Positions 20,247 to 27,506 of a stretch of DNA of 64,000 nt are shown piece by piece. The stretch spans positions 1,302,001 to 1,366,000 of the forward strand of contig NZ_FVZB01000006.1 in assembly GCF_900166655.1 (NCBI RefSeq). Direction: 5' to 3'. Position 1 is the first letter of the stretch, and each line of letters begins with the position of its first letter. The notes below the pieces were generated by a model that saw only the letters and a list, made by a program, of their open reading frames with translations, had not been told where the DNA came from and searched no databases. The position numbers were made by a program, and so were the translations under genes. The stretch comes from Halobacillus hunanensis. GTDB lineage: Bacteria; Bacillota; Bacilli; Bacillales; Halobacillaceae.

Positions 20247-20726
20247 TTATTTATGGTACGGTTCCCCCCGATTAATCTTAAAAGCCCGATAAACTTGCTC
20301 CACCAGCACCAGCCGCATCAACTGATGAGGAAACGTCATTTTAGAAAACGAAAGTCCGAAGTCCCTTCGCTGCAAAACTTCATCACTCAACCCCAGTGAT
20401 CCGCCAATGACAAAGGCGACCTTGCTCTTACCATACGTAGCAAGGTCGTCCATTTTTTTGGCAAATTTCTCCGATGTCAGCTGCTGGCCGTCGATTTCCA
20501 GCGTTATAACATAGCTATCCGTATTGATTTTGCTCAGAATCCGCTCCCCTTCTTTTTGCTTCACTTCAAGCATTTGCGCCTCGCTTAAGTTCTCGGGAGC
20601 CTTTTCATCTGCAACTTCGATCAAATCAACTTTAGCGTAAGGGCCAATTCGTTTTACGTATTCTTGGATGCCTTGTTTCAAGTACTTTTCTTTTAGTTTT
20701 CCAACGGTTATGATGGTGATTTTCAT
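20247..20726 (-). CDS. rlmH: 23S rRNA (pseudouridine1915-N3)-methyltransferase RlmH
   Basis: SPOUT-class methyltransferase of 159 residues that modifies pseudouridine 1915 of 23S rRNA in the assembled ribosome. The fold signatures [27 protein letters not shown] are spread over residues 102-129, and the C-terminal knot [22 protein letters not shown] and RGEPYHK end are family hallmarks. In B. subtilis the orthologue (yydA) also lies beyond the walRK-htrC operon; here the two are separated by ltaE, asnB and an M48 protease gene. Confidence 0.95.
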
Positions 20727-24637: not shown

Positions 24638-25666
24638 TTAACGATTGGAAACTAATTGCTCTACACGATTTAGAACAGCTTCTATATCCTCCGCACTCAC
24701 ATCGTAGTTTGTTACGAATCTTACTGTTTCAGGCCCAAATGGCACTGCTAACACGTCGACACCTTTTAAATCGACCAGAAATTCATCAGCTGACTTTCCT
24801 AGGCCAGCTACATTGACTAGAACAATGTTGGTCTCTACCTGTCCTTCCAAACTTAGACCGCCAATTTGGCCAAGACCTGCAGCGAGTCGCCGGGCATGTT
24901 CATGATCTTCCGCTAATCGATCAACCATTTCGGATAAAGCTACTAATCCAGGTGCAGCAACCATACCAACCTGTCTAAGACCGCCTCCCAGACGTTTGCG
25001 CCATTTTCGGGCTTTGTTAATGAATTCATAAGAGCCGGATATGATTGAGCCCATTGGAGCACCGAGCCCTTTTGATAAACAAAACTGAACCGTATCTGCT
25101 TGAGCTGCGTAATGTTCAAGTGATACACCCGACGCCACTGACGCATTGAACAACCTCGCCCCATCCAGATGCACTGGGATCTGGCGTTCGCGAGCCACTT
25201 CATAAATGGCTTGCATATTTCCAAGTGGTACAACAGCTCCTCCGGCTTTATTATGGGTATTCTCCATACAAATAAGGCCGGTTTCTGGAAAATGAATATC
25301 CTCTGGACGGATTGCAGCTCGCACCTCTTCTGAATCCATCGCTCCGCGGTTACCATGAATAGTTCTAGGCTGAACACCAGCGAACGCAGACATTGAAGCC
25401 CCTTCATATAAAAATAGATGAGAATTTGCCTCAAGCAGTACTTCATCACCAGGGTGACAATGTGTTAACACCGCCACCTGATTTCCCTGTGTTCCACTCG
25501 TCACAAATAAAGCGGCTTCTTTACCAAGAAGTTTCGCAGCCATTTCCTCTAACTGGTGAACCGTAGGATCCTCGCCATATACATCATCTCCTACTTCGGC
25601 TTCAAAGGCAGCTTCTCTCATGGCTTGCGTTGGTTTTGTTACTGTATCACTTCGTAAATCGATCAT
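24638..25666 (-). CDS. ltaE: low-specificity L-threonine aldolase
   Basis: PLP enzyme that splits threonine/allo-threonine to glycine and acetaldehyde. Counting from ATG at 25666 it has 342 residues. It starts MIDLRSDTVTKPTQAM, typical of the family, followed by GDDVYGEDPT, the PLP-contact HLDGARLFNA near residue 167 and the PLP lysine in CLSKGLGAP near residue 198. GGGAGG lies 8 bases before this ATG; the longer frame to 25738 has no support. It sits between asnB and the DnaA-box cluster. Confidence 0.9.
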   Translation of the reverse strand: MIDLRSDTVTKPTQAMREAAFEAEVGDDVYGEDPTVHQLEEMAAKLLGKEAALFVTSGTQGNQVAVLTHCHPGDEVLLEANSHLFLYEGASMSAFAGVQPRTIHGNRGAMDSEEVRAAIRPEDIHFPETGLICMENTHNKAGGAVVPLGNMQAIYEVARERQIPVHLDGARLFNASVASGVSLEHYAAQADTVQFCLSKGLGAPMGSIISGSYEFINKARKWRKRLGGGLRQVGMVAAPGLVALSEMVDRLAEDHEHARRLAAGLGQIGGLSLEGQVETNIVLVNVAGLGKSADEFLVDLKGVDVLAVPFGPETVRFVTNYDVSAEDIEAVLNRVEQLVSNR

Positions 25667-25880
25667 ATGTAATTCCTCCCTTATTTCCATCAGTGTACGA
25701 AATAAATTTATTTCAGAACATTCCTTTGACCACAGCATTTAAATTCACAATAATTTCTATATCAAGAGCACAACGAAGAACTCTATAAGACATTTCTCGT
25801 ATGTCGTTAGTAAAGCCGGCTTTATGTCTACGGGGGATGGATATATTTTTTCAGATAACATGTGATTAACTAGCAGGTAT

Positions 25881-26145
25881 TGTGGATAAACGCTAATACT
25901 GCGCCACCACTGTTATTCACATGTGGAAAGCAAGACTAACGAAAATAGTTACCCACAATTGTCCACAGACTTATACACAACTAATATTGATTTACTTTTA
26001 CTAACAGGTTGTCCTAGGCTATGAACAAGTTATCCCCTGAATTTATCCACACCTGTGCATAACTTAAAGTCTATATGGTAGTAGTATATATGTTCGCTAC
26101 CATATATGCTATTTATCCAGAGCTTTATCAACATACTGTGGATAA
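25881..26145. promoter_or_regulatory. DnaA-box cluster (oriC-proximal)
   Basis: Six exact matches to TTATNCACA lie within 265 bases: 25881-25889 (-), 25913-25921 (+), 25971-25979 (+), 26043-26051 (+), 26054-26062 (-) and 26137-26145 (-). One-mismatch copies lie at 25949-25957, 25959-25967, 26113-26121 and 26125-26133. The stretch is intergenic and A-T-rich. It is not oriC itself, because no dnaA or dnaN is adjacent. Clusters like this near the origin in B. subtilis bind DnaA and influence initiation. Confidence 0.85.
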
Positions 26146-26163
26146 ATGTGTATGACTTACCTT

Positions 26164-26205
26164 AAAAAAAGGCGCATGCATTGAATCGATCCATGCATGC
26201 GCCCT
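26164..26205 (-). terminator. terminator of the walR-htrA operon
   Basis: GGCGCATGCAT and ATGCATGCGCC pair; the minus-strand side ends in seven T. It follows the htrA stop codon directly. Confidence 0.9.
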
Positions 26206-26210
26206 CATTT

Positions 26211-27428
26211 TTATTGCTGTGAGCCTAACGTTACAGTAACTGTATTCTTTTCTCCATCCCGATAATATGTGATTTCCATTTCATCACCAGGGTCTTTCTG
26301 TTTATAAAGATACTTGCGTAAGTCGATGATATCTTCTACCGGCTCACCATCGACCGCTGTAATGACATCAAGTGGTTCTAAACCAACTTTATCGGCAGGT
26401 GACATTCTCGTAATACTTCGAATGTATAAGCCGCCATTCACATCTTCAGGTAAATTCAAAGTGTTTCGCCATTCAGAAGTTGGAACTTGCGATAATGAGT
26501 AGGCTTCGATTCCTATGAATGCCCGATTAACTTGTCCATACTGCTCAAGCTCTGCGATGATCGGTTTAACTGTTTCAATTGGTATAGCAAAACCGATGCC
26601 TTCTACAGCTGACTGAGCGATTTTCATGGAGTTAATTCCAATAACTTGTCCTTCTATGTTTATAAGTGCTCCTCCACTGTTTCCAGGGTTAATGGCTGCA
26701 TCAGTTTGAATAACTTCTGATTGCCAGTCTTTTTGGCCGTCTCCATTAAAATCCTGAGGAATTGCCCGTTGTTTCCCGCTGATAATTCCTTTAGTGACGG
26801 ATCCAGCAAAGCGAAGGCCTAAAGGGTTTCCAATTGCAATAGCTGGTTCTCCTACTTGTAAGTTGTCAGATGAACCAAACTCAGCAACTTTCTTCACATT
26901 TTCACTCGACATCTTAAGTACAGCTAGATCAGTAAATACATCCCCGCCGACCAGCTGTGCCTTCTTCCTTGTACCATCGGAAAGAACGACTTCGATTTCG
27001 CTAGCCCCTTCAATGACGTGATAATTCGTCACTACATAGGCAGTGCCGTCTTCTTTCTTATAAATAACGCCTGATCCAGCTCCTGCCTGCTCAGGATCCC
27101 CTCTCTGCTCCCAGAAATTTTGCTGAGATTGGAGGTTGATAACCCCTACAACTGCAGGAGATACTTCTTCCACCACTTTAGTAATTTGGCTTGTTACATC
27201 TAACTCAACTGTTTGTGCGGGATCTTCATTAGGAGTACCCCCATCCTCAGCTGATTGTTGTTCATTTGGAGTAATATTATATGGCAGTATGTTTGTCTGG
27301 ACCAGCGCCGGTAAAGCGAGCAGCACGAGAACTGCACCAAGAACGACTCCAACGATCGTTGGCATAACAAAGCGACGTCGACCTTTTTGCCGCTGATTGG
27401 CTGGTGAATGATCGTCATAATAACCCAC
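26211..27428 (-). CDS. htrA: HtrA-type membrane-anchored serine protease with PDZ domain
   Basis: Envelope quality-control protease (YyxA/HtrC-like). From GTG at 27428 it has 405 residues: a short cytoplasmic start, a membrane anchor at about 20-45, a polar linker, a trypsin-like domain with catalytic H137 (TNYHV), D167 (FTDLAVL) and S251 (NPGNSGGAL), and a C-terminal PDZ domain (about 300-400). AAGGTGG lies 5 bases before the GTG; an ATG at 27449 with its own AAGGA is a real alternative. It closes the wal operon, as in B. subtilis, which ties it to wall stress. Confidence 0.9.
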   Translation of the reverse strand: MGYYDDHSPANQRQKGRRRFVMPTIVGVVLGAVLVLLALPALVQTNILPYNITPNEQQSAEDGGTPNEDPAQTVELDVTSQITKVVEEVSPAVVGVINLQSQQNFWEQRGDPEQAGAGSGVIYKKEDGTAYVVTNYHVIEGASEIEVVLSDGTRKKAQLVGGDVFTDLAVLKMSSENVKKVAEFGSSDNLQVGEPAIAIGNPLGLRFAGSVTKGIISGKQRAIPQDFNGDGQKDWQSEVIQTDAAINPGNSGGALINIEGQVIGINSMKIAQSAVEGIGFAIPIETVKPIIAELEQYGQVNRAFIGIEAYSLSQVPTSEWRNTLNLPEDVNGGLYIRSITRMSPADKVGLEPLDVITAVDGEPVEDIIDLRKYLYKQKDPGDEMEITYYRDGEKNTVTVTLGSQQ

Positions 27429-27506
27429 GTTTTCCACCTTTCCTTTCATTTCGGCTTTCCTTCTACCTATCTTATTGTTACCTTATCCAAACCCATTTAA
27501 AACCTG

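What the first reader, a model, noticed from the sequence alone, without database searches (positions are those of the whole stretch)
25881..26145. Dense DnaA-box cluster between ltaE and htrA
Six exact TTATNCACA boxes on both strands and at least four one-mismatch boxes occupy 265 intergenic bases. Nothing like it occurs elsewhere in the window. The site lies tens of kilobases from the origin on the left arm, where B. subtilis also has DnaA-box clusters that titrate DnaA and affect initiation timing. The adjacent wal operon end and ltaE have no known need for DnaA, so the cluster itself is likely the functional unit.
Basis: partly seen in the sequence, partly recalled or inferred. Interest (0 to 1): 0.78.

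Follow-up and report, generated by a model that had tools for sequence, protein, structure and literature searches.

The report
Ancient DnaA-box cluster outliving its gene
A 300-base patch packed with binding sites for the protein that starts chromosome copying sits at the same chromosomal place in many relatives of Bacillus, and in the Halobacillus family it was kept although the small gene that once overlapped it is dead, which suggests that the binding sites themselves matter.

Summary
The cluster is real: six exact and four one-mismatch DnaA boxes in 265 bp, with two more one-mismatch boxes just outside; 0 of 5000 shuffles match it. It is the counterpart of the B. subtilis yydA DnaA-box cluster, one of eight strong DnaA-binding regions there (PMC4447404). 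A DNA profile built from other families hits it at E=1.2e-13, and with non-box columns shuffled the best of 10 control models gave E=0.036. At least two exact boxes lie at this place in 43 of 43 readable family genomes and in 57 of 60 loci from 46 other families of the order. Elsewhere the cluster overlaps the 3' half of the small gene yyzF. Here yyzF is dead (0 of 44 genomes above cut-off), yet the DNA from the first box on stays colinear with it, with in-frame stops in 42 of 43, and the next gene downstream varies. This favours a cis role of the boxes, most likely DnaA sequestration near oriC, over control of one neighbour. The genome also has counterparts of the trmE, ywlC, gcp and sda clusters. 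DnaA binding and any effect on replication are inferred. New member of a known kind.

The parts
25861..26155 (.). whole DnaA-box cluster: 6 exact and 6 one-mismatch boxes
25881..25889 (-). exact DnaA box TTATCCACA
25913..25921 (+). exact DnaA box TTATTCACA
25949..25967 (+). two one-mismatch boxes (25949, 25959), conserved in the family
25971..25979 (+). exact DnaA box TTATACACA, conserved in the family
26043..26051 (+). exact DnaA box TTATCCACA
26054..26062 (-). exact DnaA box TTATGCACA
26113..26133 (+). two one-mismatch boxes (26113, 26125); read on the minus strand each gives an in-frame stop in the yyzF remnant
26137..26145 (-). exact DnaA box TTATCCACA, where the conserved block begins ('A box'; codons L-S-T of the former yyzF)
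26000..26152 (-). stretch homologous to the 3' half of yyzF and the DNA behind it in other families
   Evidence: nhmmer E=1.2e-13; controls
26092..26145 (-). remnant of the last 18 codons of yyzF (LSTVC**SSG*IAYMVAN), three in-frame stops
26072..26107 (.). imperfect palindrome TATATGGTAG-N15-CTACCATATA on the minus strand; conserved non-box element of unknown role
26211..27449 (-). htrC-like HtrA protease gene; left neighbour whose end anchors the cluster in the family
24638..25738 (-). ltaE-like aldolase ORF as listed; the likely start is the inner ATG near 25666
20247..20726 (-). rlmH (B. subtilis yydA), which elsewhere lies directly behind the cluster

Best explanation
The site is the orthologue of the B. 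subtilis yydA DnaA-box cluster. DnaA very probably binds its boxes cooperatively and the site holds a share of the cell's DnaA; lying about 46 kb from oriC it is doubled early in each replication round, so it takes up free DnaA soon after initiation and helps to prevent early re-initiation, together with the other clusters. Selection acts on the boxes as a cis element and not on one neighbouring gene: in this family the overlapping gene yyzF decayed while the boxes stayed. Shown: the cluster, its place, its homology and its conservation, and the loss of yyzF. Inferred: DnaA binding, sequestration and the effect on timing.
For: Place: walJ-htrC-[cluster] in 43 of 43 readable family genomes. Across 46 other families, 54 of 60 loci have at least 2 exact boxes behind htrC or ahead of rlmH, and 3 more once the stretch next to rlmH was read. 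Density behind htrC: family 5.55 per kb against 0.023 elsewhere; order 3.81 against 0.078; reversed-pattern controls 3 and 3. Homology: nhmmer E=1.2e-13 in the window and hits in 43 of 43 family loci from a model made only from other families; 10 column-shuffled models gave nothing, 10 with only non-box columns shuffled gave one hit at E=0.036. B. subtilis: eight regions dominate DnaA binding at the lowest concentration, region 8 is upstream of yydA spanning yyzF, Kd 0.16 uM with ATP (PMC4447404 passages); removal of six clusters outside oriC causes early initiation (two reviews, passages). Near relatives B. mojavensis, B. tequilensis and B. halotolerans have 3 exact boxes each at the yyzF-rlmH site. 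yyzF lost: 0 of 44 genomes above cut-off; stops in 42 of 43 remnants. Box columns are more conserved (modal 0.905) than other columns inside (0.705) or beside the cluster (0.554). Other clusters of the set are present.
Against: No binding or replication data exist for this species. In B. subtilis DnaA appears to repress the yyzF-yydD operon, so a gene-regulatory role of the ancestral site is real. [quoted passage not shown] The palindrome and the CGTTAGT/ACTAACG repeats are conserved too, which boxes alone do not explain. In the wider class only 8 of 20 loci have at least 2 exact boxes there, so the site is not universal.
Confidence: 0.65

Rival explanations
1. The cluster is an operator: DnaA bound there represses or tunes a neighbouring promoter (formerly yyzF-rlmH, now ltaE or whichever gene lies next to it), linking that gene to replication status.
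For: DnaA appears to repress yyzF-yydD in B. subtilis (PMC4447404 passages; PMC8203912 passage). In the genus and in 16 of 43 family genomes ltaE starts within 1 kb.
Against: The other 27 of 43 do not have ltaE within 1 kb; rlmH is 1.5 to 11 kb away in the 15 family stretches where it was found; a promoter scan of 25550-26300 found 2 sites against 2.7 expected. Other downstream genes were not identified, and a promoter of unusual type would be missed.
Confidence: 0.2
2. A gram-positive analogue of datA or DARS: a DnaA nucleoprotein complex that changes the nucleotide state or assembly of DnaA, with a second protein bound at the central palindrome between the boxes.
For: A conserved non-box palindrome lies between box groups; loose box-93/95-box-12/13-box spacing is seen in 42 of 44 family entries and 34 of 60 order loci (no chance control run).
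Against: Pairing in the palindrome shows no covariation beyond shuffles (73 of 1000 reach the observed value) and its fold is ordinary (z -1.81). In other families part of it is the coding end of yyzF. A 2026 review states that B. subtilis lacks IHF, datA and DARS (PMC13220808 passage).
Confidence: 0.1
3. The boxes are passive leftovers of yyzF/rlmH leader DNA, kept by chance or by linkage, without present function.
For: The stretch is derived from the yyzF 3' half.
Against: Box columns are far more conserved than the rest (0.905, 0.705, 0.554); 43 of 43 family genomes keep at least 2 and 42 keep at least 3 exact boxes while yyzF is gone; at one site exact boxes occur in 10 of 43 family remnants and in 0 of 47 intact genes.
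Confidence: 0.03

Closest known systems
B. subtilis yydA DnaA-box cluster (upstream of yydA/rlmH, spanning yyzF)
   Same: Dense DnaA boxes on both strands, origin-proximal, between the wal/htrC side and rlmH; DNA homology to the same block in other families.
   Different: In B. subtilis relatives the cluster stays with intact yyzF and rlmH, about 18 kb from htrC in G329; here it stays with htrC, rlmH is 5.5 kb away and yyzF is a pseudogene.
Other B. subtilis clusters: trmE/jag, ywlB/ywlC, gcp/ydiF, yqeG/sda
   Same: Box groups occur at the corresponding places of this genome: 2, 4, 3 and 2 exact intergenic boxes (genes, except ywlB, which is recalled).
   Different: Different loci, no DNA homology claimed. 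The ywcI/vpr cluster was not looked for.
E. coli datA
   Same: A non-oriC DnaA-box group near the origin that restrains initiation (PMC5295017 passage).
   Different: datA needs IHF, which B. subtilis lacks (PMC13220808 passage); no homology or shared gene context was looked for.
oriC of this genome
   Same: Same box type; 6 exact boxes upstream of dnaA and 2 between dnaA and dnaN.
   Different: Not beside dnaA or dnaN, 45.7 kb away; unwinding elements were not tested.

Membership tests
B. subtilis-type non-oriC DnaA-box cluster, yydA locus | several DnaA boxes grouped within a few hundred bp outside oriC, beyond chance | tested here: met
B. subtilis-type non-oriC DnaA-box cluster, yydA locus | orthologous place between htrC and rlmH, next to yyzF | tested here: met
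   in this family yyzF itself is a remnant
B. subtilis-type non-oriC DnaA-box cluster, yydA locus | DNA homology to the cluster of other families | tested here: met
   E=1.2e-13; controls
B. subtilis-type non-oriC DnaA-box cluster, yydA locus | high-affinity DnaA binding in vitro and in vivo | not testable with these tools
   known for B. subtilis only (PMC4447404)
B. subtilis-type non-oriC DnaA-box cluster, yydA locus | deletion, with the other clusters, advances initiation | not testable with these tools
   known for B. subtilis only (reviews); that yydA is among the six is recalled
datA/DARS-type DnaA-modulating locus | binding site for IHF or a comparable second protein, required for action | tested here: inconclusive
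   a conserved palindrome exists, no covariation, partner unknown
datA/DARS-type DnaA-modulating locus | change of DnaA nucleotide state | not testable with these tools
   biochemistry needed
replication origin (oriC) | adjacent to dnaA or dnaN | tested here: not met
   45.7 kb from dnaA
replication origin (oriC) | DNA unwinding element and DnaA-trio | not tested
   no scan made

The most novel reading that the evidence does not exclude
The clusters form an ancestral DnaA buffer of fixed chromosomal sites in Bacilli, and this site shows selection for the buffer itself: the boxes won a conflict with the overlapping gene yyzF, in whose frame a perfect TGTGNATAA box is read as a stop codon, and the central palindrome marks a second, unknown partner protein, making it a gram-positive counterpart of datA.
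Probability: 0.15. Interest if true: 0.75.

Novelty: new member of a known kind. Interest (0 to 1): 0.5.

Why it matters
Whether the clusters outside oriC matter by holding DnaA or by regulating their neighbour genes is hard to settle in B. subtilis, where cluster and operon sit together. In the Halobacillus family the gene context of this cluster has changed while the boxes are kept, so it is a natural experiment that separates the two. Conservation of the place across many families suggests that the clusters are old parts of replication control and not a B. subtilis peculiarity, and gives a list of genomes in which that can be tested.

Tried and rejected
Non-box element as a new protein site or RNA hairpin: at first GTRGCGAAC looked like a separate conserved element; it proved to be the coding end of yyzF in other families. 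As a hairpin it has no covariation support and an ordinary fold. Rfam gave one match below its gathering score, E=0.14. Promoter and terminator scans gave nothing beyond chance. Single-sequence hairpin scans in other families were mostly no better than shuffles.

Possible extra yyzF copies: 22 of 44 family genomes have sub-threshold matches at E up to 1 (best 18.9 bits against a cut-off of 35, in G001), none over cut-off. The one short cysteine-rich frame found near the locus (L077) belongs to G036, which has no match, so I treat it as false. My text pattern for yyzF missed some: L119 has no pattern hit but a near full-length profile hit, so 47 of 60 is a lower bound.

Script faults: the second-site count was off by one base for the family; one search replaces it. 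A pattern failed to anchor most sequences. The last listing misplaced some elements (for example L017). The box-spacing pattern has no chance control.

Rows dropped: L056 (contig ends inside htrC) from all family counts; three of 20 class loci without an htrC hit; one of 31 genomes each had no locus. In one search, L185 had 49 bp behind the gene. I took 59 of the 135 genomes outside the family, plus G329, chosen by strand, contig and family and not by boxes, and 20 of the genomes.

Literature: searches listed no paper on conservation of this cluster, but the two key papers (Okumura 2012, Ishikawa 2007) are not held, so I cannot say that it is unpublished.

Full report
Observation. The window has six exact TTATNCACA boxes between 25881 and 26145 on both strands, four one-mismatch boxes inside that span and two just outside. 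Shuffles of the intergenic stretch never reach this (0 of 5000). In the genome (3.98 Mb, 7 contigs) there are 192 exact boxes against 141 for the reversed pattern. The cluster lies at G000:C1 about 1,328,000, 45.7 kb from the start of dnaA.

Place and known counterpart. The order of genes is walR, walK, walH, walI, walJ, htrC-like, cluster, ltaE-like, asparagine synthase, M48-type protease, rlmH (walK and the M48 label are from reading). In B. subtilis the eighth strongest DnaA region in vitro lies upstream of yydA (rlmH), spanning yyzF (Kd 0.16 uM with ATP-DnaA, 7 sites), and the eight regions are also those bound in vivo (PMC4447404: abstract and passages). Two reviews report that removal of six clusters outside oriC causes early initiation (PMC5295017 and PMC13220808: passages). 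That yydA is one of these six I recall; the primary paper is not held.

Conservation in the family. walJ was found in 44 of 44 family genomes. One contig ends inside htrC (L056). In the other 43, own genome included, at least two exact boxes lie within 800 bp behind htrC, at least three in 42, at least four in 34; 191 exact boxes in 34.4 kb (5.55 per kb) against 13 in 555 kb of the rest (0.023 per kb); reversed control 3. Contig lengths identify some of these genomes as Halobacillus andaensis, H. litoralis and Thalassobacillus devorans. Box columns of the family alignment have a mean modal fraction of 0.905, other columns inside the cluster 0.705, flanking columns 0.554.

Conservation beyond. 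From the order I read 60 loci of 46 other families. At least two exact boxes lie between or beside htrC and rlmH in 54 of 60. Of the six others, three (L115, L121, L138) had no rlmH in the stretch; further DNA showed 3, 2 and 3 exact boxes just upstream of rlmH there, counted as L257, L256 and L255. The last three (L093, L108, L112) have one exact box and 2, 6 and 3 one-mismatch boxes. In 20 loci of 20 further families of the class, 8 have at least two exact boxes at this place and eight have none in the stretch. Where genes were inserted, the cluster stayed with htrC (this family) or with rlmH (L102, L134, G329 at about 18 kb from htrC). Named genomes agree: of the 80 best RlmH loci, 63 have at least two exact boxes in the 800 bp upstream of rlmH (257 boxes, reversed control 3), including B. 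mojavensis, B. tequilensis and B. halotolerans; 12 have none, among them three Halobacillus, Thalassobacillus, Oceanobacillus, Virgibacillus, Gracilibacillus and Aquibacillus. These 80 are the best of 582 and so lean towards Bacillus.

The dead gene. In 47 of 60 order loci and 13 of 20 class loci a small CxxH/CxxC protein gene lies there, family TIGR04129 (two members tested), which is yyzF by place. In the family 0 of 44 genomes have a match over the cut-off. A DNA profile of yyzF plus 110 nt from the 47 order loci, none from this family, matches window 26152-26000 at E=1.2e-13, and matches 43 of 43 family loci (E 1.6e-25 to 6.4e-8), in most from model position 93-104, which is the first DnaA box. 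Ten column-shuffled models gave no hit; ten with only non-box columns shuffled gave one, at E=0.036 (the shuffling also scatters gap columns, which may weaken those models). The last 18 codons are colinear: LSTTCEYCGNNAVYIVAN in L105 against LSTVC**SSG*IAYMVAN in the window and LSTACE*CSG*IAYMVAN in L052. In-frame stops occur in 42 of 43 remnants, at the Tyr/Phe codon of CxxC in 33. In this frame a perfect TGTGNATAA box is read TGT GNA TAA, a stop. At this site 10 of 43 remnants have an exact box, against 0 of 47 intact genes; mean mismatches 0.88 against 1.96. Seven loci of five other families without a recognised yyzF also match only from position 90-171 on (L091, L126, L128, L092, L096, L093, L113), which hints at repeated loss; no tree was made.

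The set. The genome has box groups at the places of other B. subtilis clusters: trmE/jag 2, upstream of dnaA 6, dnaA-dnaN 2, ywlC 4, gcp/ydiF 3, yqeG/sda 2 exact intergenic boxes. TsaD (gcp), an ABC-F protein, the TsaC-type protein, MnmE, Jag, DnaA, DnaN, YqeG and Sda were checked by family models; the small ORF taken as ywlB matched none. In 30 genomes each of the order (own included) at least two exact boxes lie within 500 bp at gcp in 24, ywlC in 24, trmE in 20. ywcI/vpr was not looked for, and one search listed only part of the boxes, so other clusters may exist.

How it most likely works. Boxes kept at one place near oriC, through loss of the overlapping gene and changes of the downstream gene (ltaE within 1 kb in 16 of 43), are best explained as a cis DnaA-binding site that is doubled early in replication and takes up free DnaA. 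Against this stand the repression of yyzF-yydD by DnaA in B. subtilis, the statement in one review that no cluster with a significant role in initiation control is known there, and the absence of any binding data here. A conserved palindrome in the cluster (26072-26107) remains unexplained: 336 of 390 cells pair, but shuffles reach this in 73 of 1000, and in 11 of 39 distinct sequences its spacer appears inverted.

Verdict. Ordinary in kind, since it is a known type of site at a known place, but its depth of conservation and the loss of the gene under it make the question of titration against gene control testable.

Noticed in passing
window 26072-26107; family loci L046, L053-L055, L058, L060-L064, L066: The central palindrome TATATGGTRG...CYACCATATA has its spacer inverted in 11 of 39 distinct family sequences, as if the loop between the arms had flipped.
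   Followed up: partly
window 25788-25800 and 25938-25945: CGTTAGT/ACTAACG motifs flank the end of the cluster as an inverted pair; CGTTAGT occurs behind htrC in 32 of 43 family loci and 2 of 60 order loci. Role unknown.
   Followed up: no
   Followed up: no
L023 4839-4951, L079 5927-6045, L250 2131-2230, L022 4702-4818: Counterparts of the ywlC, gcp/ydiF, sda and trmE clusters in this genome; the first three were also sampled in the order except sda.
   Followed up: partly
L092 (f14), L096 (f18), L093 (f15), L113 (f35), L091/L126/L128 (f13): Other loci where the profile matches only from the yyzF middle onward, suggesting further losses of yyzF with boxes kept.
   Followed up: partly
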